A stretch of 33,453 nucleotides of DNA from Allorhizocola rhizosphaerae. Its GTDB lineage: Bacteria > Actinomycetota > Actinomycetes > Mycobacteriales > Micromonosporaceae. A program made the position numbers and the translations under genes. Where the stretch lies: contig NZ_QJUG01000083.1 in the NCBI RefSeq assembly GCF_003426775.1, positions 1 to 33,453 of the forward strand, in the 5' to 3' direction. The notes beneath the pieces are model-generated. The model worked only from the letters and a program-made list of their open reading frames with translations, was not told the origin of the DNA and did no database searches. This document shows, one piece after another, positions 376 through 22,685 of this stretch (position 1 is the first letter of the stretch; each line of letters begins with the position of its first letter).

Positions 376-1629
376 TCACACCAGCTCGACGCCGGCGATG
401 GTCTTCTTGCCCCGGCGCAGCACGAGGTAGCGTCCATGGAGGAGAGAATCCCTGCTCAGTGGACTGTCGGGATCGGACACTCGCTCATTGTTGAGGTACA
501 TGCCGCCTTCGGCCGCGGCACGGCGCGCATCGCCCAAACTCGACGCGAGGCCCGACTCCCTGAACAACACCGCAGCATTGTCCAGCGACGACACCCGCGC
601 GAGGCCCGCCTCCGCGAGCGCCGCGCCCAGTGTGGACTCGGGCAGGTCGCTCAGCGCACCCCGCCCGAACAGCGCCTGCGACGCCGCGATCACCGCCTGG
701 CACTCCTGTTTGCCGTGCAACAGCGTGGTGAGCTCCTCCGCCAGCGCCTTCTGCGCCCCGCGCAGGAACGGCTTCTCCGCCGTCTCCCGCGCCAGCTCCT
801 CGATCTCCTCCCGCCCGCGCAGGCTGAAGATCTTCATGAACGGCACCACGTCACGATCGTCGGTGTTGAACCAGAACTGGTAGAACGCGTACGGGCTGGT
901 CATGCTCGGGTCGAGCCACAGGGCCCCGCCCTCCGTCTTGCCGAACTTGGTCCCGTCGGCCTTGGTCACCAGCGGTGTGGTGAACGCGTGCACCGGTCCG
1001 GCGCCGCGCCGCCGCACGTAGTCGACGCCCGCGGTGATATTGCCCCACTGATCCGACCCACCAAATTGCAGGCTGCACCCGTACCGTCGATGCAATTCAA
1101 AAAAGTCATTTCCTTGAATCAGCTGGTACGAGAACTCGGTGTAGCTGATTCCGCTCTCCAGCCGGTTTCGGACCACATCGCGGGCGAGCATCTTGTTGAC
1201 CGGGAAGTGTTTGCCGACGTCACGCAGGAACTCGATGGCCGACATGGGCTGGGTCCAGTCCAGGTTGTTGACCATCGTGGCCGCCACGGAGCCCTCGAAG
1301 TCGAAGAACGGCTCGACCTGCCGCCGAATCTTGTCGACCCACGTCGCGACCACGGCCGGGTCGTTGAGCACGCGCTCGCCGCTGTCCTTCGGATCACCGA
1401 TCAGCCCGGTCGCGCCCCCGACCAGCAGCAGCGGCCGGTGGCCGGCAAGCTGCAACCGGCGCGCGGTCAGCACCTGCACCAGGTTGCCATGATGGATGCT
1501 CGGCGCGGTCGGGTCGAACCCCACATAGAACGTCACCGGCCCGCCGGCCAGGTGCTTGCGGAGCTCATCGAGGCCGGTCGAGTCCTGTATCAGGCCGCGC
1601 CACTGCAGATCATCGAGGATGTCGGTCAC
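376..1629 (-). CDS. tyrS: Tyrosyl-tRNA synthetase
   Basis: This cytoplasmic class I aminoacyl-tRNA synthetase charges tRNA-Tyr. With the GTG start at 1629 it is 417 residues, the usual bacterial length. That start is preceded by a GGGGGAT ribosome site; a longer reading frame to 1701 has no family similarity in its extra residues. Visible landmarks are FYVGFDPTAPSIHHGN (residues 34-49, the HIGH-type motif HHGN), a LLLVGGATGLIGDP stretch, KFGKTEGG near residue 230 (the KMSKS-type loop) and a C-terminal S4 RNA-binding domain. It runs in the same direction as the rRNA leader to its left and is divergent from the DUF1800 gene, with 116 bp between the starts. Confidence 0.97.
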   Translation of the reverse strand: MTDILDDLQWRGLIQDSTGLDELRKHLAGGPVTFYVGFDPTAPSIHHGNLVQVLTARRLQLAGHRPLLLVGGATGLIGDPKDSGERVLNDPAVVATWVDKIRRQVEPFFDFEGSVAATMVNNLDWTQPMSAIEFLRDVGKHFPVNKMLARDVVRNRLESGISYTEFSYQLIQGNDFFELHRRYGCSLQFGGSDQWGNITAGVDYVRRRGAGPVHAFTTPLVTKADGTKFGKTEGGALWLDPSMTSPYAFYQFWFNTDDRDVVPFMKIFSLRGREEIEELARETAEKPFLRGAQKALAEELTTLLHGKQECQAVIAASQALFGRGALSDLPESTLGAALAEAGLARVSSLDNAAVLFRESGLASSLGDARRAAAEGGMYLNNERVSDPDSPLSRDSLLHGRYLVLRRGKKTIAGVELV

Positions 1630-1734
1630 GACGACGATTATCCCCCGTGCCTGGACCCGGCCCGCATCAGGTTTACCGTAAGCAGCCGGCGGGCCACGCA
1701 TCGATAACTAGCGCGATGGCGTACCGATCCGGTT

Positions 1735-1740
1735 TACTCT
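1735..1740 (+). promoter_or_regulatory. Candidate -10 box for a leaderless DUF1800 mRNA
   Basis: TACTCT lies 5 bases before the ATG at 1746, which would put the transcription start at or next to the start codon. No ribosome site precedes either candidate ATG (1716 or 1746), and no clear -35 is visible. This is inference only. Confidence 0.3.
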
Positions 1741-1745
1741 CCCCC

Positions 1746-3059
1746 ATGGCCGAACGCGACAAGCTCGCGCATCTGCTCCGCCGGGCGACCTTCGGCCCCA
1801 CGGCCGAAGAGGTCGACGCGGCGGAGCGCGACGGGCTCGAGGCGACGATTGCGCGGCTGGTCGGGCCGTCGGACCCCAATCTGGGCCCGCCCATCCCCGT
1901 GATCACCAACGATCCCGTCGACTCCCTTCCCCGGGACGCGACCGGCGCCCAGCGCGAGGCGGCGCGCAAGACGCGCGAGACCCAGATCGCCACGATCACC
2001 AACTGGTGGCTGGATCGCATGGTCGTTGCCGGGAGCCAGCTTGAGGAGAAGATGGCCTTCTTCTGGCACGGGCACTGGGCCACCAGTATCGAAAAGGTCG
2101 ACTCGGCCCACCTGATGCTGTTGCAGCACAACACGTTCCGCCGCTACGGGCAGGGCGATTTCGCCGCGTTCGTGAAGGCGATGGTTCGCGACCCGGCCCT
2201 GATCCTGTGGCTTGACGGGCAGCGCAACACCCGCAAGGCGCCCAACGAAAACCTGGCCCGCGAGCTGCTTGAGCTGTTCTGTCTCGGGATCGGCAACTAC
2301 ACCGAAGACGACGTCAAGGCGGGCGCCCGCGCGCTCACCGGCTGGGTGGTCGAGCGCGGGAGCGGCAAGACCCGCCTCGACATGAGCCGCTATGACGCCG
2401 GCGAGAAGACGATCCTCGGCCAGACCGGCAAGTTCGACGCCGACGGGTTCGCCGATGTGCTGCTCAACCTGCCCGCCTCGCAACGCTTTGTGGCCCGCCG
2501 GCTGTGGTTCCGGTTCGCCTCGGGCGACCCGGTCCCAGAGGAGGTGCTGCACAAGCTGGTCAGCGCCTACCACGCGGGCAAGGGCATCACGACCATGCTG
2601 CTGGCGATGTTCAGCCACCCGGCGTTCCTGGCGACCCGTGGGCAGCTGGTGAAGCAGCCGCTGGAGTGGGCGGTCGGGGCGATGCGCCAGCTGGGCCTGC
2701 GCCCGTCGACCCTGGCCGAAAACGACCGCAAGCAGCTGATGAACAGCCTCGATGGGCTCGATCAGGTGCCGTTCCGCCCGCCGAGCGTTGGCGGCTGGCC
2801 GCATGGGGCGGCCTGGCTGACGAGCCATTCCATCCAGGTGCGGCTGCGCCTGGCCGAGATGCTCGCGGCGCGCACGCCCAATTCGGTGCTCGCCAAGCTC
2901 AACGAGGCCCCGCAGGAGGGCCGGCCCGACGCGCTGGCGAAACTGCTCGTGGTCGACGCCTGGACGCCCCGCACGCGCGCCGTGCTCGACGGCGCCGCCA
3001 AGGATTCGCGCAAGATGCTGGCTCTGGGGCTGGTCAGCCCCGAGTACAGCGTCCATTGA
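1746..3059 (+). CDS. DUF1800 family protein
   Basis: This 437-residue protein has the DUF1800 hallmark near its N-terminus (LLRRATFGPT, residues 8-17). It also has typical later blocks: FFWHGHW, a LWLDGQRN-x4-PNENLARELLELF stretch, GARALTGW, and a C-terminal PPSVGGWPHG. Biochemical function is unknown. DUF1800 genes are almost always next to DUF1501 genes, as here: the next gene starts 8 bases after this stop and its ribosome site overlaps the stop codon, so they form an operon. The start is uncertain. ATG 1746 is chosen because it begins the family homology and suits a leaderless transcript; ATG 1716 in the same frame is the alternative. No signal peptide is evident. Confidence 0.85.
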   Translation: MAERDKLAHLLRRATFGPTAEEVDAAERDGLEATIARLVGPSDPNLGPPIPVITNDPVDSLPRDATGAQREAARKTRETQIATITNWWLDRMVVAGSQLEEKMAFFWHGHWATSIEKVDSAHLMLLQHNTFRRYGQGDFAAFVKAMVRDPALILWLDGQRNTRKAPNENLARELLELFCLGIGNYTEDDVKAGARALTGWVVERGSGKTRLDMSRYDAGEKTILGQTGKFDADGFADVLLNLPASQRFVARRLWFRFASGDPVPEEVLHKLVSAYHAGKGITTMLLAMFSHPAFLATRGQLVKQPLEWAVGAMRQLGLRPSTLAENDRKQLMNSLDGLDQVPFRPPSVGGWPHGAAWLTSHSIQVRLRLAEMLAARTPNSVLAKLNEAPQEGRPDALAKLLVVDAWTPRTRAVLDGAAKDSRKMLALGLVSPEYSVH

Positions 3060-3067
3060 GGAGAGTC

Positions 3068-4312
3068 ATGGACTTTCTGACCAGACGCAAGTTCCTGCTC
3101 GCCAGCGGGGTCACCGGGGCCGGCGCCATCGCCGCGGGCGTCACGTGGCTGCCGATGAAGGAGATCATGCAGACGGCGGGCGAGCTGACCGGGCTCGCGC
3201 CCGGCGTGCCCAAGATCCTCGTCATCGTCACGCTCTACGGGGGCAACGACGGGCTCAACACCGTCATCCCCTACAACGACCCCGCCTACGCCAAGGCGCG
3301 GCCCGATCTGGCCTATGACGAGGGCGAGGTGCTCAAGCTCGACGAGGTCGCGGGGCTCAACCCCGCGCTGAAGGGAATGCACCAGGCATTCGAGCGCAAG
3401 CAGGTGGCGATCGTGCGCAGCGTCGGCTATCCGAAGCCGGATCGCAGCCATTTCCGTTCGATGGACATCTGGCACACGGGCGAGCCGGAGCGTCCCGGCA
3501 ACACCGGCTGGCTGGGCCGCTGGCTCGATACCGCAGGCGGCGATCCGCGCCTGGCCGTGTCGTTCGAGCAGGTGCTGCCGCCGCTGCTGGCCGGCGAGGC
3601 GAGCGCGGGCGCGGTGGTGGGCGGCAACGGGCTGCGCCTGCCCAAGACGTTCAACATGAAGTCGATCAGCGGGCTGGGCCAGGTCGTGCCGGGCGAGCCC
3701 AAGTTGCAGGCCCGCGCGGCCTCGTGCTTCGAGGCCTTGGCGGGTGTCGACCAACTGATCAAGGACGTGATAGAGGACGCGGCCGAGCGGGCCAAGGCGG
3801 GCGAGACCCAGGCGACCGGCACGGGCGGGCAGACCGCGATCCAGCAGCAGTTCAACCTGGTCGCGCAGTGCATCGAGGCGAAGGTGGCCACCCGGGTGTT
3901 CTCCGTGTCGCTGGGCGGCTTCGACACCCACGCCGACGAGAAGCAGCCGCACCAGACGCTGTTGGGCATGCTTGACCGCGCTGTGACCGGCTTCCTCGAC
4001 CGGATGTCCAAATCGGAGCAGGGCAAGAACGTGGTCGTGTTGGTTTATTCGGAGTTCGGGCGGCGAGTGAAGGCCAACGCGTCCGACGGCACCGATCACG
4101 GCACGGCGTCCGATGTGTTCCTGCTCGGGCATGGCGTCAAGGGCGGGATCTACGGGCAGCCGCCGGACCTGAAGGACCTCGACCGGGGTGGCGATTTGAA
4201 ATACACCACCGATTTCCGCGACGTCTATGCCACCGTGCTGGAGCGGGTGCTGGAGACCGACGCGGATCGGGTGCTGCCCAAGTGGAGCGGGCGGCTTCCC
4301 CAGATCGTCTGA
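3068..4312 (+). CDS. DUF1501 family Tat-exported protein
   Basis: This is a 414-residue member of the DUF1501 family (related to the alkaline phosphatase/sulfatase fold). The N-terminus MDFLTRRKFLLASG plus a hydrophobic stretch is a twin-arginine signal, so it is exported folded across the membrane. Family blocks seen are LYGGNDGLNTVIPYNDPAYA, the RSHFRSMDIWHTGEPE region, SLGGFDTHADE and YSEFGRRVKANASDGTDHG near the C-terminus, whose His/Asp residues are probable metal ligands. The ATG is preceded by GAGGAGAG (3058-3065), which overlaps the stop of the upstream DUF1800 gene. Translation and probably function are therefore linked, but the physiological role of the pair is unknown. Confidence 0.88.
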   Translation: MDFLTRRKFLLASGVTGAGAIAAGVTWLPMKEIMQTAGELTGLAPGVPKILVIVTLYGGNDGLNTVIPYNDPAYAKARPDLAYDEGEVLKLDEVAGLNPALKGMHQAFERKQVAIVRSVGYPKPDRSHFRSMDIWHTGEPERPGNTGWLGRWLDTAGGDPRLAVSFEQVLPPLLAGEASAGAVVGGNGLRLPKTFNMKSISGLGQVVPGEPKLQARAASCFEALAGVDQLIKDVIEDAAERAKAGETQATGTGGQTAIQQQFNLVAQCIEAKVATRVFSVSLGGFDTHADEKQPHQTLLGMLDRAVTGFLDRMSKSEQGKNVVVLVYSEFGRRVKANASDGTDHGTASDVFLLGHGVKGGIYGQPPDLKDLDRGGDLKYTTDFRDVYATVLERVLETDADRVLPKWSGRLPQIV

Positions 4313-9695: not shown

Positions 9696-12216
<2,521 letters not shown>

Positions 12217-16149: not shown

Positions 16150-16755
16150 GTGATCAGAGTCCTTATTGGACAGAAAGGCAGGCTGCTGCGTGGGGCGATT
16201 GCGACCGTGCTGTCGCGGACGCCGGAGATGAGAGTCGTAGCCGAACTGTCGCACGGTGACAGGGTGGCAAGTGCCGTGCAGCGCGAGGCGGTCGACATCG
16301 CCGTCCTCGATTCGAGGATACCCTGTTCCATCTTATTAACCGATTTATGCGAGAAGCTCATTCCACAATGCGCGGTTCTTCTCCTGAGCGACCCGGAATC
16401 CACCGACAGGCTGTGTTTCAGCCTTGCGAGGTTGGCTCCCCGGGTCGGTTTTATTGCCACCGAATCGTCGCCCGACGTGCTCATCGACAGCGTGCTGCGG
16501 GCTGCTCGGGGCGAGGTGGTCATCGACACCAAACTGGCGTTGTCGGTGATGATCGCCAATCAGAACCCACTGACCGAACGCGAGCGCGAGGTGCTCCGGC
16601 TTGCCGCCGAGGGGCTGCGCTCCACCGAGATCGCACAGCGGCTCTTCCTCAGTCCGGGGACGGTCCGGAACCACCTGTCACGGATCCTGACCAAGACGGA
16701 CTCGCGGACCCGGATCGCGGCGATCCGGGCGGCTCATGAGCGAGGCTGGATATGA
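16150..16755 (+). CDS. LuxR-family response regulator, RamR-like, atypical receiver
   Basis: This 201-residue regulator has a receiver-like domain (1-120) and a LuxR helix-turn-helix (141-195: LTEREREVLRLAAEGLRSTE, then a recognition helix SPGTVRNHLSRIL). Asp54 in AVLDSRIP is at the phosphorylation position. However, the acidic pair expected at residues 8-9 is Gln-Lys, and the conserved Lys near 104 is Thr, so ordinary aspartyl phosphorylation looks impaired. No histidine kinase is nearby. By position and type it is the counterpart of RamR, which activates the SapB ramCSAB operon in Streptomyces. Here it lies convergent to the transporter genes, and the two coding regions overlap by 107 bp. 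Confidence 0.88.
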   Translation: MIRVLIGQKGRLLRGAIATVLSRTPEMRVVAELSHGDRVASAVQREAVDIAVLDSRIPCSILLTDLCEKLIPQCAVLLLSDPESTDRLCFSLARLAPRVGFIATESSPDVLIDSVLRAARGEVVIDTKLALSVMIANQNPLTEREREVLRLAAEGLRSTEIAQRLFLSPGTVRNHLSRILTKTDSRTRIAAIRAAHERGWI

Positions 16756-18355
16756 GTTCACGATAGAGGGCGGAGCGCTCCAGCAACCCGGCATGGTCGC
16801 CGAGCTGGGCGCCCGCCCCATCGAGCACCAGGATCCGCTTGGCGCGCAGCGCGGAGCTCAACCGGTGCGCGATGACGATCAGCCCGCCGGGCCGGCGGGC
16901 GAAAGCCTGCTCCGCGACGGCTTCCGTGGCCGGATCGAGGTGGCACGTGGCCTCGTCGAGAATCACGATCGGCGCGGACGACAGGTAAGCCCGCGCGAGC
17001 GCGATCAACTGGCGCTGACCGGCCGACAGGCGCCCCGGCTCGACCACCGCGTCCAGCCCACCGAGCTCTTCGACGAGCGTGCCCGCCCCGACGGCCGCGG
17101 CCGCGGCATTCAATAAAGCGTCGTCCGCACCGGGACGCAGATAGGCGAGGTTCTCCCGCACGGTGGCCGAGAAGACGTACGCCTCCTGCGGAATGAGCAC
17201 CCGGTCGGCGACGACCACCTCACCCGACGACGGGTGGCGCAGCCCGCACAGGACCATCGCGAGGGTCGACTTGCCGATGCCGCTCGGGCCGATCACAGCG
17301 AGGTGCGCACCCTCGCCCACGGCCAGGCTCAGATCGCGGAACACCGGCTCGCTGTGCGGGCCGTAGGCGAAGGTCACGTGGCGCGCCTCCAACCGGGTGC
17401 CGGCCCCTTTGACCGCGGCCGGCGGTGTGACGCGCTGCTCCAGCAGCCGGCCCAGGGTCACCGTGTACCGCAGGCCCGCGCCGCCGAGCCCGCCCATGAG
17501 CTTGCGCATCGCCGGCTGGAGTCCAAACAGGACATACGTCAGCCCGCCGAGCACCTCGCCCGGGGTCAGGCCCCGGCCGGTGAGCCACGGGACCGCCATG
17601 AGCAACGCGATGAGCGGGAGCCAACCGCCGACCGCGAAGCACAGCGTGCGCACGACGGCGGTCCACGACAGCGCGCGCTCGGCGGCCGCCTGGTCTTCGA
17701 TCGGCCCGGCCACCATCGCGGCGGCATGACCCGACGCACCGCACGCGATGGCGTCGCGCGCCCCGGCCACCACCGTCGACGCGGTCGCCGCGAGCCGCTC
17801 CTCGGCCAGTACGGCCGCACGCTGCCGCCGGGCCGAAAGACCAAGCGAGGCAACGAATCCGGCCACGCCCAGCAGGAACGGCGGGCCGACGAACAGCATC
17901 ACCCACGGCGACAACGCGAGCAGCCCGAGCAGCACGCCCACCACGCCGACCACGAAATCGCGGGTGACCATGAGCAGTCCCGCGAAGCTGTCCCGGACGA
18001 TCTCGACCTGGCGGGTCAGCCGGGCCACCGCGCCGTCGTCGGCCTGCCCGTCCAGGGCCCGCGCGAGCGAGGACCCGACCACCCGGCGCACCAGCTCGTC
18101 GCGCATGGGCTCGACCATCTCGCCCAGCCCGCGCAGCACCTGCCGGGCGCCGACCGCGCTGCACAGGCTGACCGGGATGATCGCGGCCAGCCACGCCAAC
18201 CCGACCAGCGACCGCCCCGCGAGGAAATGGTCCACCGAGCGGGCCACCGCCACGCCGAGCATCGCCGCGGGCAGCGCCTCCGGCAGCGACCACAGCAAGA
18301 AGCGCAGCACCGCCCCGCGCCGCAGGTGCAAGACACCGAAGGCAATCGGAGTCAT
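16649..18355 (-). CDS. ABC exporter subunit (RamB-like), class III lanthipeptide export
   Basis: This 568-residue fused membrane/ATPase protein has five or six hydrophobic segments in residues 1-310 and an ATPase domain after that. Walker A is IGPSGIGKS (356-363 for GPSGIGKS), the signature is LSAGQ (443-447, Ala for Gly), Walker B is VILDEAT with the catalytic Glu468, and the switch His is at about 497. The start ATG at 18355 forms an ATGA with the upstream ABC gene, implying a heterodimer. The last ~35 residues are a Gly/Ser/Pro-rich tail encoded opposite the end of the regulator gene, probably a read-on beyond an ancestral stop. Predicted role: export of the modified peptide. Confidence 0.88.
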   Translation of the reverse strand: MTPIAFGVLHLRRGAVLRFLLWSLPEALPAAMLGVAVARSVDHFLAGRSLVGLAWLAAIIPVSLCSAVGARQVLRGLGEMVEPMRDELVRRVVGSSLARALDGQADDGAVARLTRQVEIVRDSFAGLLMVTRDFVVGVVGVLLGLLALSPWVMLFVGPPFLLGVAGFVASLGLSARRQRAAVLAEERLAATASTVVAGARDAIACGASGHAAAMVAGPIEDQAAAERALSWTAVVRTLCFAVGGWLPLIALLMAVPWLTGRGLTPGEVLGGLTYVLFGLQPAMRKLMGGLGGAGLRYTVTLGRLLEQRVTPPAAVKGAGTRLEARHVTFAYGPHSEPVFRDLSLAVGEGAHLAVIGPSGIGKSTLAMVLCGLRHPSSGEVVVADRVLIPQEAYVFSATVRENLAYLRPGADDALLNAAAAAVGAGTLVEELGGLDAVVEPGRLSAGQRQLIALARAYLSSAPIVILDEATCHLDPATEAVAEQAFARRPGGLIVIAHRLSSALRAKRILVLDGAGAQLGDHAGLLERSALYRELISSLAHEPPGSPRSGSASPSWSGSVTGGSGPSPD

Positions 18356-19965
18356 TGGAACACCGCCCGATAGGCAGGCTCGTCCCACAGTGCGGCGTGC
18401 GAGCCGACCGCGCGCACCGTGCCACCGTCGAGCCACACCACCAGATCTGCCCGCTCCGCCGTGGTGATGCGATGGGTGATTATCAATCTGGTACGCGACG
18501 CGGCGAGCAGCGCCTCGCCGATGCGCATCTCCGTGACCATGTCCAAACTCGACGTCGCGTCGTCAAGGACCAGCAGGCGGGAGGCATCCCACGCCCGCGC
18601 GAGCCCGAGCCTCTGCGCCTCCCCACCCGACATCGGCGCGTCCGCGAGCGGGGTGTCATACCCATGCGGCAAGCGCACGACGAAATCGTGTGCATGCACG
18701 GCGGTCGCGGCACGGGTCGCACCGACGTGCTCTCGACCCAGGCCGATGGCGTCGGAGACGGTACCCCCCAAAAGAACGGGTTTTTCAAAAGCGCAACCGA
18801 CGGCTCGCCGCAGCTCCCCCTCGGACACGGACGGCAACGGCACGCCGTCGAGAAGCACAGTGCCACCATCGGGATCACGCAGCCGCGCCGCCAGAAAAGC
18901 CAGCACGGACTTGCCCGACCCCGACCGGCCCACCACGGCAGCAGATGATCCACCCGGCACGGCAAACGTGACGCCGCGCAGCACACCATCCACGGAAACG
19001 CCGTCGAACTCCAGCCGCCCCGGACCGTCCGGAAGCGACAGCGTGCCGTAGGAAAGGGGCGGGACTTGCAGAACCGCATTGATGCGCGACGTCGCGGAGC
19101 GGGCACGAGCCAGCCCGCCCAGGACGCCCGTCAGAGCGCCAAGTCCCGCCCCGATGACCGCGTAGCGGCCCGCCGCGAACAGATCTCCGGGGGTGAGATC
19201 GTGTGAGGCGAGCAGCAGACCGCCCGCGGCCATCACCACGACCAGCACCAGGGGCCCGACGACGGCACCCTGGGCGGTCGAGCGCGCAAGCACCTGCCAC
19301 ATCCGCATCCCCTGCGCGCGAAGCTCTTCAAGTGGCCGGAGCACGCGCTCGCGCTCGGCCTCGTACGTCCCGGCGGCGGCGATGGTCCGGGCACCGGTCA
19401 TCGCCTCGGTCAGGCGGGCCGCGATGCCGCTCTGCGCCACCTGATAACCGGCCGATGCCTGCTCGGCGCGCCGGCTGAACGAGCGAAGCACGAGGGTCAC
19501 CCCGCCCACGCCGGCCAGGAACGCCACGCCCAGCCGCCAGTCCATGATGGACAGCACGATGAGGCTGCCCACGGGCGGCAGGACCCCGAGCGCCAGGCTG
19601 ATCCGGCTGAAGTCCGCCTGGGCGGCCTCCGACGCCTGCCCCGAGACCCGGCTCACCAGGTCACCGGTGGGAAACCCGAGCAGGCGGTGCGGACTGACGG
19701 ACAGGATCTGCCGGATCAGCGCATGGCGCAGCCGGGCCGCCGCGTTGGCGGCGTATGCCGTGGTCGCGAATGAGTCGAATAGATCCGACGCGATGGACAC
19801 GGCGATCAGCCCGACTGCGAGGGCGAGCCCGTTGCCGTCGATCGCCCGGCCCAGCGCCATGGGCAGCGCCAGGGAGGCGAACGTGCCTATCGCGCCCGAA
19901 CAGGCGACCAGCATAAGCTGACGGCGGGACCGGGCGATCTCCACTCGTCCGGTCCCGCCATTCAT
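18352..19965 (-). CDS. ABC exporter subunit (RamA-like), class III lanthipeptide export
   Basis: This 537-residue protein has an ABC-exporter membrane domain (about residues 1-300) followed by an ATPase domain. Walker A is GRSGSGKS (346-353), the signature MSGGE (445-449), the Walker B end LLVLDDATSSLD, and the switch His at about 498. The residue after the Walker B Asp is Asp469, not the catalytic Glu, the kind of change found in the degenerate site of heterodimeric exporters. The ATG at 19965 has an AGGTGG ribosome site and lies 26 bp after the precursor gene. Export of the mature peptide is inferred from context. Confidence 0.9.
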   Translation of the reverse strand: MNGGTGRVEIARSRRQLMLVACSGAIGTFASLALPMALGRAIDGNGLALAVGLIAVSIASDLFDSFATTAYAANAAARLRHALIRQILSVSPHRLLGFPTGDLVSRVSGQASEAAQADFSRISLALGVLPPVGSLIVLSIMDWRLGVAFLAGVGGVTLVLRSFSRRAEQASAGYQVAQSGIAARLTEAMTGARTIAAAGTYEAERERVLRPLEELRAQGMRMWQVLARSTAQGAVVGPLVLVVVMAAGGLLLASHDLTPGDLFAAGRYAVIGAGLGALTGVLGGLARARSATSRINAVLQVPPLSYGTLSLPDGPGRLEFDGVSVDGVLRGVTFAVPGGSSAAVVGRSGSGKSVLAFLAARLRDPDGGTVLLDGVPLPSVSEGELRRAVGCAFEKPVLLGGTVSDAIGLGREHVGATRAATAVHAHDFVVRLPHGYDTPLADAPMSGGEAQRLGLARAWDASRLLVLDDATSSLDMVTEMRIGEALLAASRTRLIITHRITTAERADLVVWLDGGTVRAVGSHAALWDEPAYRAVFQ

Positions 19966-19991: not shown

Positions 19992-20147
19992 TTACTTGCC
20001 GCCGCAGAGCAGCGCGCTCAGCTCGGAGCCGTGGCCGCCGCACAGGGTGATGCTGATGTCCGAGCCGCAGCTGTGGCCGGAGTTCGAGCTTCCGGTGGCC
20101 ATGTCGACGATCGGGGAGTCCATCGCCTGGAGGTCGAGCAGCGTCAT
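19992..20147 (-). CDS. Class III lanthipeptide precursor, SapB (RamS)-like with three ring motifs
   Basis: This 51-codon gene has a textbook AAGGAG ribosome site (20155-20160) 7 bases before ATG 20147 and ends TAA. The leader MTLLDLQAMDSPIVDMA contains the class III recognition motif LLDLQ. The core is predicted to start at Thr18-Gly19-Ser20, by analogy with SapB (core beginning TGS, recalled from memory). It contains three S-x2-S-x3-C motifs: SSNSGHSC (20-27), SDISITLC (29-36) and SELSALLC (41-48), then GGK. Each motif is the substrate for a labionin or lanthionine ring made by LanKC. The first two align with the two SapB rings; the third, joined by GGHG, is extra. It sits between the kinase-cyclase and the transporters, as ramS does. 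Confidence 0.93.
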   Translation of the reverse strand: MTLLDLQAMDSPIVDMATGSSNSGHSCGSDISITLCGGHGSELSALLCGGK

Positions 20148-20165: not shown

Positions 20166-22685
20166 TTAGGGGTTTACCTGACCCGCACCGATCAGTGCGG
20201 GAGTCTTGTCGTCCAGCGCCGCGCCCAGGGCGAGCAGGACACCGGCGGTGCCGGTGGCCAGATCCATCGACAGGCGCAGCAGGCCGTTGCCGGGGAAGGC
20301 CAGGCCATCCTTGAACGGGACGGCATGCCAGTCGAGGTTGCGCACCTGCTTTTCGATGCCGGGGCGTTTCGTCGCAGCCAGGTAGAGCAGGATGCCGGCG
20401 CGGCCGCTGAACAGGTTGGGCAGCGCATACATCGTGGACTGCGCGGCCAGGCCGATCTGGTCGGCGGCGGTGCGGAACTGTTCGTCCTCGCGCCGGGTGA
20501 GGTAGTCCTCCAGCGCCAGTCCAATCCCGACACTGCCGGTCTCGAAGTACGGCATGGTGCGCCAGCCCTCGTTGACCTCCATGATGCCGTCGGAGCGGAC
20601 AACGCATCGCTTGAGATCCATGCGCAGCGCGGTCGCGGCCTTCTCGAGAAACGCCTCGTCGCCGGTCTCGTCGTAGGCGCGCATCAACAGCAGCGCCGGG
20701 CCGGACGCGCCGCGCACCAGACCCGCGAGCGGATTGTCACCACCGCTGATCTCCGGCACGGAGTCCTCGTTGCCCAACCGCTCCGCGACCAGGCGAGCGG
20801 CCTCCAGCCCCGCCTCGCGCAGCCTCGGTTCACCGGTGCGGTGCGCCAGGTGCAGCAGGTTGAGGCCAACGCCCGCCAGACCCGAGTGGAGGTCCTGGCC
20901 CAGCGTCGTCCAGTTCTCGCTGAGCACCATGTCGACCAGATTCAATGCCTCCTTCTGGTACCCGAGGTGCTCCAGCACGAACGCGACGCCGTGCAGCCCG
21001 TCATACAACCCCGGCGGCGTCCCGGTCGCGGGCTTGCGCGCCCGCTGCAGCAGCCACTCCTCGTACTCCGGGAACCGGCCCGCGCCCGTGGCCGACAACG
21101 CATACAGCACACCGGCCGCGCCATAGCCCAGGCTGATCCCACCGCCCGTGCTGAACTGCCGCGGATCGCCCGGGAACAGACGGTCGTCGCGGTGCGGCGT
21201 CGCGCTGCCCACGATCGCCTTGGTCAAACTCATCCTCGCCTGTTCCCAATCCCCCAAAGCCGGGATGGGCCCGGGCTCCGGCGCGATCACCTCGACCGCC
21301 TGCGCCAGGAAGTCCTCGGGTACCGGGAAGTGCGCGGAGATCACGTCGGCGAAGTGCCGGGCCTTCGTGCGGTCGAGCCACACGATGTTCATCAGCGGCA
21401 GGAACAGGGCCAGCTTCAGGCAGGCCAGCGCGTAAAGGTCGATGTCGAACCCGGTCGTGCTCGACGGCGACGCGAACCCCTGGTTGGCCAGGCCCGGCCG
21501 GGTCATCTCGGAGACCGGCGCGGCCACCTCGAAGTCCAGCAGCCCGATCGTGTCATCCTCGCGCACCAGCACGTTCCACAGGTGCAGATCGCCGTACACG
21601 TATCCGCGCTCGTGGATCGCCTTGACCGCGCGCTCCGTCTGGTCGTAGATGCCCATGGCCCACGCCGTGTACGCGGCCAGGTCGTCCGGCGTCGTGTCGA
21701 GTTTGATCAGCGGGAAGCGATGCGCGATCTCCCGGCTGAGCGGGCGACCGTCCACGTACTCCATGGCCAGGAACCGATGCTCACCGATGTCGAACAGCTC
21801 ATACGCCTCGGGCACCCCGGGGATCCCGGCGAACTCGCGCATGATCTTGTACTCGCGTTCCACGCGGGCCACCGCGTCCTGCCCACGCGCGTCCAAACCG
21901 GAGTGTGGCCGTGCCTCCTTCAGCACCACCTGCCGGTCGTCCAGCTTGCGCCGGCCCACGTAGATCCCGCCACCGTTGGAAAAGTGCAACGCGCGCTCGA
22001 CCGTGTACGAGATGTCGGTCAACTTCACCGAATTGCGCGCGTCCAAGTGCGGCTGCAAAAACCCGGGCAGCTTCACCCACGGCGGCAGGTGGAACACCGG
22101 CCCCCGCCGGTCGGGCACCAGCGTGCCCGTGTCATCGGCGATCGCGCCGACGATCTGCCCATTGGGCGCCACGCAGAAGCGCGAGGCGAACGCGCCGTAG
22201 CGCACATAAAGCGGGCCCTTGCCCCATCGCAGGTCGCTGAGGATGTAGGGACTCGGCTCACCGTCGAGCAGCTCACCGAGCTCGTTGAGGATCCGCTCGC
22301 ACACCGTGTCGTCGGCGGGGTAGATCGTCACCAGCTTGCCGCTGTACCCGCGCGGGGCGTACTTGGAGACCCGGGAGATCAGCGCGGCGTGCGAGCGCAG
22401 GAACTTGAACTTGATCCCGCGCGGCGCGCAATACGCCCACACCTTGCCCAGGACGCTCTCGGCATTGTCCAAACACGACGACGCGTGAATCTTCCATCCC
22501 TGCAGCGGGAGCTCCACGTCGTCGGGTGGCACCATGACCAGCCAGTCATCCTGCTCGACGCGTCCCCAACCGTCCGGCAGCTCGCACGTGGCCAAGTCGA
22601 ACGGCCTCGGGTCACCCTGTGCGGCGTGAAGAACGTCGAAGAAGATCGGGTCCGCGTTGGTGTACGCACCATATCCCTCATCCAC
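20166..22685 (-). CDS. Class III lanthipeptide synthetase LanKC (RamC-like)
   Basis: This three-domain 839-residue enzyme should phosphorylate and dehydrate Ser residues of the precursor and cyclise them with Cys. The N-terminal lyase-type region (1-210) begins VDEGYGAYTNADPIFFD, typical for the family. The Ser/Thr kinase-like domain (about 225-490) has a nucleotide loop near 236-245, Lys256, catalytic loop YGDLHLWNVLV (Asp366, Asn371) and LLDFE (Asp384). The LanC-like cyclase (about 500-839) shows the GYG, GLYDGLHG, SGLAGVG and SGRAGILL barrel repeats but not the Cys-Cys-His zinc ligands, as expected for class III. GTG 22685 is the only start in frame before a stop. The gene ends 18 bp before the precursor gene, so the two are co-transcribed. 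Confidence 0.95.
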   Translation of the reverse strand: MDEGYGAYTNADPIFFDVLHAAQGDPRPFDLATCELPDGWGRVEQDDWLVMVPPDDVELPLQGWKIHASSCLDNAESVLGKVWAYCAPRGIKFKFLRSHAALISRVSKYAPRGYSGKLVTIYPADDTVCERILNELGELLDGEPSPYILSDLRWGKGPLYVRYGAFASRFCVAPNGQIVGAIADDTGTLVPDRRGPVFHLPPWVKLPGFLQPHLDARNSVKLTDISYTVERALHFSNGGGIYVGRRKLDDRQVVLKEARPHSGLDARGQDAVARVEREYKIMREFAGIPGVPEAYELFDIGEHRFLAMEYVDGRPLSREIAHRFPLIKLDTTPDDLAAYTAWAMGIYDQTERAVKAIHERGYVYGDLHLWNVLVREDDTIGLLDFEVAAPVSEMTRPGLANQGFASPSSTTGFDIDLYALACLKLALFLPLMNIVWLDRTKARHFADVISAHFPVPEDFLAQAVEVIAPEPGPIPALGDWEQARMSLTKAIVGSATPHRDDRLFPGDPRQFSTGGGISLGYGAAGVLYALSATGAGRFPEYEEWLLQRARKPATGTPPGLYDGLHGVAFVLEHLGYQKEALNLVDMVLSENWTTLGQDLHSGLAGVGLNLLHLAHRTGEPRLREAGLEAARLVAERLGNEDSVPEISGGDNPLAGLVRGASGPALLLMRAYDETGDEAFLEKAATALRMDLKRCVVRSDGIMEVNEGWRTMPYFETGSVGIGLALEDYLTRREDEQFRTAADQIGLAAQSTMYALPNLFSGRAGILLYLAATKRPGIEKQVRNLDWHAVPFKDGLAFPGNGLLRLSMDLATGTAGVLLALGAALDDKTPALIGAGQVNP

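What the first reader, a model, noticed from the sequence alone, without database searches (positions are those of the whole stretch)
19992..20147. SapB-like lanthipeptide precursor with three consecutive ring motifs
The 51-residue precursor has the LLDLQ leader motif and three perfect S-x2-S-x3-C motifs at residues 20-27, 29-36 and 41-48. The first two line up with the SapB core (TGSxxSxxxCG...SxxSITxC, recalled from memory). The third, after a GGHG linker, is an addition and the core ends GGK. Multiplied motifs have been described in the larger class III peptide stackepeptin, so three rings are not unprecedented. A RamS-type morphogenic peptide with an added ring would still be a new variant, with a predicted 34-residue core from Thr18.
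Basis: partly seen in the sequence, partly recalled or inferred. Interest (0 to 1): 0.88.

Follow-up and report, generated by a model that had tools for sequence, protein, structure and literature searches.

The report
Stackepeptin-type three-ring lanthipeptide precursor
This is a real gene for a small ring-bearing peptide of a type already known from a related soil bacterium (stackepeptin), sitting in a gene set like the one that makes the aerial-growth peptide SapB; it is a new member of a known kind rather than a new invention.

Summary
On the minus strand at 19992-20147 lies a 51-residue precursor with an LLDLQ leader and three exact S-x2-S-x3-C motifs. Pfam and NCBIfam place it in the RamS/SapB-AmfS family. 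It lies in a complete ram-like operon: class III synthetase LanKC, precursor, two ABC exporters, convergent LuxR-type regulator.

Two corrections. First, three rings are not new here. Three-Cys precursors beside a LanKC occur in at least 23 of 354 family genomes. One, 60% identical, adjoins the only LanKC over the cut-off of a genome whose length matches Stackebrandtia nassauensis to the base: almost certainly the stackepeptin precursor. The three-ring LanKCs form one clade. Second, the ring unlike SapB's is the FIRST (SSNSGHSC, hydrophilic); rings 2 and 3 resemble the SapB pair.

Best reading: a stackepeptin-type class III lanthipeptide, exported, probably a surface-active aid to aerial growth. 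Chaplins occur in 22 of 23 such genomes and 118 of 331 others, but kinship is not corrected for. Ring chemistry is untested.

Leads: an orphan second three-motif precursor in the same genome, and TTA codons in the regulator.

The parts
19992..20147 (-). Three-ring class III lanthipeptide precursor, 51 aa (RamS/stackepeptin type)
20166..22685 (-). Class III lanthionine synthetase LanKC, 839 aa (lyase, kinase, cyclase)
   Evidence: NF038151 1045.6 bits, cut-off 575; RamC_N, Pkinase, LANC_like; lyase and kinase residues important in ThurKC conserved
18352..19965 (-). ABC exporter 1 (transmembrane region plus ATPase), RamA-like position
   Evidence: PF00664, PF00005; matched downstream of the precursor in 20 of 20 relatives fetched
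16649..18355 (-). ABC exporter 2 (ATPase found; no Pfam membrane-region match), RamB-like position; its 3' end overlaps the regulator gene on the other strand
   Evidence: PF00005; 20 of 20 relatives, one cut by its contig end
16150..16755 (+). LuxR-type response-regulator-like gene, convergent with the operon, with three TTA codons (62, 63, 66)
   Evidence: GerE PF00196; TTA codons
20097..20147 (-). Leader region, residues 1-17 if the core begins at Thr18 (LLDLQ recognition motif); the cleavage site is unknown
   Evidence: M1 and LLDLQ (residues 3-7) invariant in 21 sequences
20067..20090 (-). Ring motif 1, SSNSGHSC (residues 20-27): hydrophilic, unlike both rings of two-ring peptides
20040..20063 (-). 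Ring motif 2, SDISITLC (residues 29-36): SapB-like
20004..20027 (-). Ring motif 3, SELSALLC (residues 41-48): SapB-like

Best explanation
The gene is a stackepeptin-type class III lanthipeptide precursor in a complete ram-like operon. Inferred mechanism: LanKC binds the LLDLQ leader helix, phosphorylates and eliminates the two serines of each S-x2-S-x3-C motif (six dehydrations), and closes three lanthionine or labionin rings. A protease encoded elsewhere trims the leader, and the two ABC proteins export the product. The product is an amphiphile: a hydrophilic, usually His-bearing first ring followed by two SapB-like hydrophobic rings. Its most likely job is SapB-like, a surface-active peptide that helps hyphae grow into the air beside chaplins. 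Shown here: sequence, operon, family, clade and co-occurrence. Inferred: all chemistry, processing, export and function.
For: Precursor and LanKC pass curated cut-offs. Lyase and kinase residues K65, H67, K94, K108, K117, D151, R162, catalytic D and N, and D and E of DFE are conserved in 30 of 30 three-ring and 20 of 20 two-ring LanKCs compared; several of the lyase residues were tested by mutation in ThurKC (PMC10604976, passages). LanKC, precursor and two ABC genes stand together in 20 of 20 relatives fetched. The 30 three-ring LanKCs form one clade, 100/100, 1 change in 100% of 200 bootstrap trees; with two more divergent three-Cys loci added the 32 still form one clade (SH-aLRT 100, quick tree). 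G348 contig 1 is 6,841,557 bases, the published length of S. nassauensis (PMC3035245, passages), the species from which stackepeptins are known (PMC6429369, passages). Its single LanKC over the cut-off adjoins a three-ring precursor 60% identical to this one. Chaplins (PF03777) are in 22 of 23 genomes with a three-Cys precursor and 118 of 331 others. The regulator carries TTA codons, as most amf-like clusters of Streptomyces do in the ramR-like or ramC gene (PMC4255298, passages).
Against: No product has been seen from this strain. The stackepeptin link rests on genome length and on a single LanKC; the stackepeptin paper itself is not held. The chaplin association is confounded by kinship: all 22 genomes of genus g15 (Glycomyces by matching contigs) have chaplins though only 10 gave a three-ring match. 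118 genomes have chaplins without a three-Cys precursor found, and one with such a precursor (G329, 86% complete) has none. The two-ring peptides also stand in ram-like operons: genus g23 has them without chaplins (no g23 genome among the 140 matches), while G314 and G095 have both. The cyclase position proposed as general base in ThurKC (Asp771) is Ser here and mostly Thr or Ser in the clade. PMC4255298 states that ramR proper was found only in streptomycetes, so the LuxR-type gene is ramR-like by place only.
Confidence: 0.75

Rival explanations
1. One reading: a RamS-type two-ring morphogen to which a third, C-terminal ring was added, a new variant.
For: The N-terminal flank of ring 1 (TGS/GGGS) resembles that of the first ring of two-ring precursors, so ring 1 could descend from SapB ring A with a changed loop. 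Ring 2 alone matches the second ring of two-ring peptides best (mean 8.99).
Against: The register ring A to 1 and ring B to 2 scores 1.3 against 10.7 for A to 2 and B to 3; for the window alone -1.9 against 8.8. Three rings are shared by a whole LanKC clade, so nothing was added in this strain.
Confidence: 0.08
2. An exported class III peptide whose main role is signalling or weak antibiosis, not surface activity; the ram-like operon only reflects ancestry.
For: Class III peptides have diverse functions (PMC10206099, passages). The operon type is shared with two-ring clusters in genus g23, whose genomes gave no chaplin match. No activity is known for this peptide. PMC6429369 calls stackepeptins bioactive without detail in the passage seen.
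Against: The loops of rings 2 and 3 are about as hydrophobic as those of the two-ring peptides. No immunity gene was recognised among the five cluster proteins scanned. Chaplins co-occur in 22 of 23. Durhapeptin, a SapB/AmfS-family peptide, induces aerial hyphae and needs its hydrophobic residues (PMC13380574, first part of the text and passages).
Confidence: 0.3
3. Ring 1 is not an ordinary lanthionine/labionin: the conserved His of SSxSGHSC is cross-linked or binds a metal, as in noursin.
For: A His precedes the SC of the first cysteine in 26 of 31 distinct three-Cys precursors. Noursin, a class III peptide, has a His-to-butyrine cross-link and binds copper (PMC10206099, passages).
Against: Noursin uses a dehydrated Thr and a separate LanKC subgroup; ring 1 here has no Thr. 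Of the 31, Lys or Gln replaces His in 4 and the orphan has Leu; two further three-Cys precursors have SASSTGC or SSSSTGC without His. So His is not essential.
Confidence: 0.06
4. A decaying or silent cluster with no functional product.
For: A second LanKC-like gene in the same genome is broken up. The cluster sits at a different place from its two nearest relatives.
Against: All five genes are open, LanKC keeps its catalytic residues, and motif residues are invariant across genera.
Confidence: 0.06

Closest known systems
Stackepeptin (Stackebrandtia nassauensis; Jungmann et al. 2016, title seen in reference lists only)
   Same: Class III; multiplied motifs in the core (title). The probable precursor in G348 has three motifs, the same leader start and the same operon, is 60% identical, and its LanKC lies in the same clade.
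   Different: Linkers differ (G and GGHG here, P and GGT there), and the tail is GGK here, H there.
SapB / AmfS (RamS family, Streptomyces; SapB sequence recalled, two-ring relatives)
   Same: Leader, RamS Pfam and NCBIfam family, LanKC-precursor-ABC-ABC order, LuxR-type regulator beside the cluster.
   Different: Two rings there, three here; the extra hydrophilic first ring; LanKC 46-49% identical to the ten Streptomyces ones compared by tblastn.
Durhapeptin (Streptomyces durhamensis, PMC13380574)
   Same: SapB/AmfS-family class III precursor with LLDLQ leader; hydrophobic residues needed for aerial-hypha induction.
   Different: Two SXXSXXXC motifs and a core of precursor, LanKC and one transporter gene.
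Noursin (PMC10206099)
   Same: Class III peptide with a functional His.
   Different: One Cys, a Thr-derived His cross-link, and a distinct LanKC subgroup.

Membership tests
Class III lanthipeptides | LanKC synthetase with lyase, kinase and LanC-like domains adjacent to the precursor | tested here: met
   NF038151 1045.6 bits over cut-off 575; class IV model 350.6 below its cut-off 650; domains
Class III lanthipeptides | LxLQ-type leader and S-x2-S-x2-5-C core motifs | tested here: met
Class III lanthipeptides | Thioether or labionin rings in the product | not testable with these tools
   needs mass spectrometry, GC-MS or NMR
Stackepeptin type (three-ring) | Three S-x2-S-x3-C motifs with a first ring like SSxS[GKN]HSC | tested here: met
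Stackepeptin type (three-ring) | LanKC in the same clade as that of the probable S. nassauensis stackepeptin locus | tested here: met
Stackepeptin type (three-ring) | The S. nassauensis precursor is the published stackepeptin precursor | tested here: inconclusive
   One LanKC over cut-off in G348; species confirmed in print; the stackepeptin paper is not held
SapB/AmfS morphogens | RamS/SapB_AmfS sequence family | tested here: met
SapB/AmfS morphogens | Two-ring core | tested here: not met
   three motifs
SapB/AmfS morphogens | ram operon order with two ABC exporters and a LuxR-type regulator | tested here: met
   orthology of the regulator to RamR not shown
SapB/AmfS morphogens | Surface activity and restoration of aerial growth | not testable with these tools
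   needs purified peptide and a deletion strain
Noursin-like His-cross-linked peptides | Thr-derived His-to-butyrine cross-link made by a LanKC-Hbt enzyme | tested here: not met
   no Thr in ring 1; NorKC itself was not compared

The most novel reading that the evidence does not exclude
Stackepeptin-type peptides are a distinct developmental surfactant family: one LanKC clade found in Micromonosporaceae-like, Glycomycetaceae, Pseudonocardiaceae and Actinopolymorphaceae genomes. A hydrophilic, usually basic head ring is fused to the SapB ring pair, and the peptide works with chaplins. In this strain the single intact LanKC also serves an orphan second three-motif precursor with a different ring order, giving two peptides from one enzyme.
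Probability: 0.3. Interest if true: 0.55.

Novelty: new member of a known kind. Interest (0 to 1): 0.3.

Why it matters
It corrects the reading of an apparent new SapB variant. The three-ring peptides are a shared stackepeptin-type family whose odd ring is at the head. If they are SapB-like surfactants, a peptide family known mainly from genome mining would gain a role, and the use of the head ring could be tested by removing it. The orphan second precursor gives a direct test of whether one LanKC serves precursors elsewhere in the genome.

Tried and rejected

Search for the orphan precursor in relatives at E 0.001: 1 of 101 family genomes, its own. It is not a widely conserved partner.

Phylum-wide search with the three-ring alignment: 6 of 396 genomes matched; only the own genome has a three-ring-level score (83 bits). 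The other five match over model positions 1-36 to 1-39 only.

Reading the Asp771-equivalent column of LanKC as a predictor of ring type: mixed letters in both groups, so nothing can be said.

Weak matches: 12 places fetched as a check. Two of 12 (G075, G329) held further three-Cys precursors, two (G001, G263) two-ring ones, eight none that my pattern recognised. Other weak matches were not fetched, so 23 of 354 is a lower bound.

Considered and set aside: that the third motif lies beyond the true end of the gene (no stop, invariant residues); that the plus-strand frames across the operon are genes (taken for GC-rich mirror frames, not tested further); that the precursor is single-strain noise.

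In-print check of three-ring SapB-type cores: searches. [quoted passage not shown] PMC11251773 lists stackepeptin and SapB in one subfamily with 2-3 cysteines (passage). In those listings, and in the passages I read, I saw nothing on the SSxSGHSC head ring or on a chaplin association; no search was made for chaplins, and most subscription papers are not held.

Full report
THE OBSERVATION. The minus strand of 19992-20147 encodes MTLLDLQAMDSPIVDMATGSSNSGHSCGSDISITLCGGHGSELSALLCGGK followed by TAA. AAAGGAGCG lies upstream of its ATG. It scores above the curated cut-offs of Pfam RamS (38.8 bits, cut-off 24.3) and NCBIfam SapB/AmfS (34.6 bits, cut-off 25).

THE OPERON. Reading with transcription on the minus strand: LanKC (22685-20166), precursor, ABC exporter 1 (19965-18352), ABC exporter 2 (18355-16649). 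A LuxR-type gene on the plus strand (16150-16755) converges on it. LanKC is class III: 1045.6 bits against a cut-off of 575, while the class IV model stays below its own cut-off. Lyase residues important in the solved ThurKC, and the kinase catalytic residues, are kept in 30 of 30 three-ring and 20 of 20 two-ring LanKCs compared. None of the five cluster proteins scanned is a protease; actinobacterial class III clusters usually lack one (PMC7268733, passage).

RELATIVES. A search of 354 genomes of the same family with this single precursor gave, besides itself, 20 fetched loci whose precursors have three cysteines. In 19 of these 20 all three motifs are exact; in L021/L059 the first is in the S-x2-S-x2-C register. 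In 20 of 20 the precursor stands with a LanKC and two ABC genes; one (L049) is cut by its contig end. A later check of 12 weaker matches added two more three-Cys precursors (G075, G329), with first ring SSSSTGC or SASSTGC and two exact hydrophobic rings after it, beside a LanKC and at least one ABC gene. So at least 23 of 354 genomes have the type; weaker matches beyond these 12 were not fetched. A scan of named genomes gave 51 loci, 23 with three cysteines and 28 with two (counted by eye); many of the 23 are the same genomes again. Their hosts are nine Glycomyces, four Actinophytocola, two Amycolatopsis and one each of Longispora, Catelliglobosispora, Rhizocola, Phytohabitans, Phytomonospora, Herbihabitans, Actinopolymorpha and a strain named Micromonospora sp. 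CPCC 205371. In one of the 23 (L112) the first ring is S-x2-S-x2-C. The 28 two-ring loci are all Streptomyces. In a sample of 397 genomes of the order, 45 matched the three-ring alignment, 8 of them at three-ring level (83 bits or more, own genome included). In 396 genomes of the phylum, 6 matched and only the own genome at that level. These samples overlap in part.

STACKEPEPTIN. One of the 20 lies on a contig of 6,841,557 bases (G348), exactly the published genome length of Stackebrandtia nassauensis (PMC3035245, passages). That genome has one LanKC over the cut-off, and it adjoins the three-ring precursor MALLDLQGLESPADLSATRGGSSGSGHSCPSNLSATLCGGTSGLSVLICH. [quoted passage not shown] The identification is therefore very likely but not read from that paper, which is not held. 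The window precursor is 60% identical to it.

PHYLOGENY. A tree of 52 LanKC proteins puts all 30 three-ring LanKCs (window, 20 family loci, 9 others) on one side of one branch with support 100/100, in 100% of 200 bootstrap trees. Their sister group is nine two-ring LanKCs of the same family. Two rows (L152, L153) belonged to no group. I left out L074, a partial match, L154-L156, and most of the Streptomyces loci. A second, quick tree without L152 and L153 and with the two divergent three-Cys loci puts these next to the 30; the 32 form one clade (SH-aLRT 100) and the 30 another within it (97). The window LanKC pairs with those of G340 and G093 (100/98), at 66% identity to the nearest.

WHICH RING IS EXTRA. 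Ring 1 of the three-ring peptides has a hydrophilic loop (mean Kyte-Doolittle -1.4). The loops of rings 2 and 3 are hydrophobic (2.3 and 3.7), like those of the two rings of two-ring peptides (3.8 and 1.9). Matching two-ring rings A and B to rings 2 and 3 gives 10.7; to 1 and 2, 1.3; to 1 and 3, 0.05 (29 against 37 distinct precursors; 2 irregular ones left out). The 29 include the orphan described below, whose hydrophobic first ring works against the point. The two divergent precursors, not in this count, also have the polar ring first. So the SapB-like pair is rings 2+3 and the head ring is the odd one. The flank before ring 1 (TGS, GGGS) does resemble that before ring A, so how the ring arose is open. 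A His precedes the first SC in 26 of 31 distinct three-Cys precursors, Lys in 3, Gln in 1, Leu in the orphan.

FUNCTION. Chaplin domains (PF03777) were found in 140 of 354 family genomes. Of the 23 genomes with a three-Cys precursor 22 have them; the exception is G329, 86% complete. Of the other 331, 118 have them (Fisher p 7e-9). None of these is corrected for kinship. The within-genus test is uninformative: all 22 genomes of g15 (Glycomyces) have chaplins, 10 of them with a three-ring match. The regulator has three TTA codons and ABC exporter 2 one, against one in the six non-cluster genes counted. Among three-ring relatives with a regulator match, 16 of 26 have at least one TTA in the matched stretch; among two-ring loci of this family 1 of 9; among Streptomyces loci with a match 4 of 4 (two best matches per locus). 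TTA codons in amf-like clusters of Streptomyces are on record, and the same review says that ramR itself was found only in streptomycetes (PMC4255298, passages). Durhapeptin, a two-ring relative, induces aerial hyphae and needs its hydrophobic residues (PMC13380574, first part of the text and passages). S. nassauensis makes aerial mycelium on some media. Together these make a SapB-like role the best guess, at about 0.6 within the overall explanation.

VERDICT. A sound observation, correctly placed in class III. The claim of a new variant with an added C-terminal ring is not supported. It is a new member of the stackepeptin type, on a branch of its own with two relatives. What is fresh is the single-clade picture, the head-ring position, the chaplin co-occurrence, and an orphan second precursor in the same genome.

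Noticed in passing
G000:C157:44696-44839 plus strand (L002 1501-1647; L032 about 9697-9843): Orphan second class III precursor in the same genome: MALLDLQALDARPVPTGHPFSEISLLLCPSENSIHLCWRSELSVTLCA, three exact S-x2-S-x3-C motifs. No match to the window LanKC or ABC proteins in the 18 kb around it; neighbours include a GDSL lipase, an AHSA1-domain gene and an NRPS gene. Found in no other of 101 family genomes.
   Followed up: partly
G000:C440:39817-40641 and surroundings (L034 about 403-3267; L061): An open frame of about 955 aa that begins like LanKC (62% identical over 29 residues), continues with AMP-binding and condensation pieces of an NRPS, then returns to LanKC sequence (60% identical to residues 259-534 of the window LanKC). 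It looks like a broken mosaic gene or an assembly chimera.
   Followed up: partly
In the window the whole lanthipeptide operon and its regulator sit in that junction, while G340 and G093 have their three-ring operon elsewhere. Gene names here are recalled from the sequences, not from a family search.
   Followed up: yes
window 16150-16755, codons 62, 63 and 66: Three TTA codons in the LuxR-type regulator. In 8 of 9 g15 (Glycomyces) loci with a match the regulator has one at aligned codon 56 or 57.
   Followed up: partly
window 16649-16755: The regulator gene and the end of ABC exporter 2 overlap by about 107 bases on opposite strands.
   Followed up: no
L187 (G075) and L188 (G329): A second flavour of three-Cys precursor (SASSTGC or SSSSTGC head ring, then two hydrophobic rings) whose LanKCs are sister to the stackepeptin-type clade.
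   Followed up: partly
L140-L143, L149 (genus g23): Near-identical two-ring precursors repeated within one cluster (GGGSQASLLLCGDSSLSVTTCN type), two or three per locus.
   Followed up: no
L147 (G372), L148 (G657): Precursors with a Thr-bearing first ring (STLTVLGC or STLTILGC) and a SNLS or SNIS second ring; three copies in L147.
   Followed up: no
L046, L047, L048, L049, L054, L055, L056 (genus g15): The match to ABC exporter 2 is split by a gap of a few hundred bases between the membrane and ATPase parts, suggesting an insertion in that gene.
   Followed up: no
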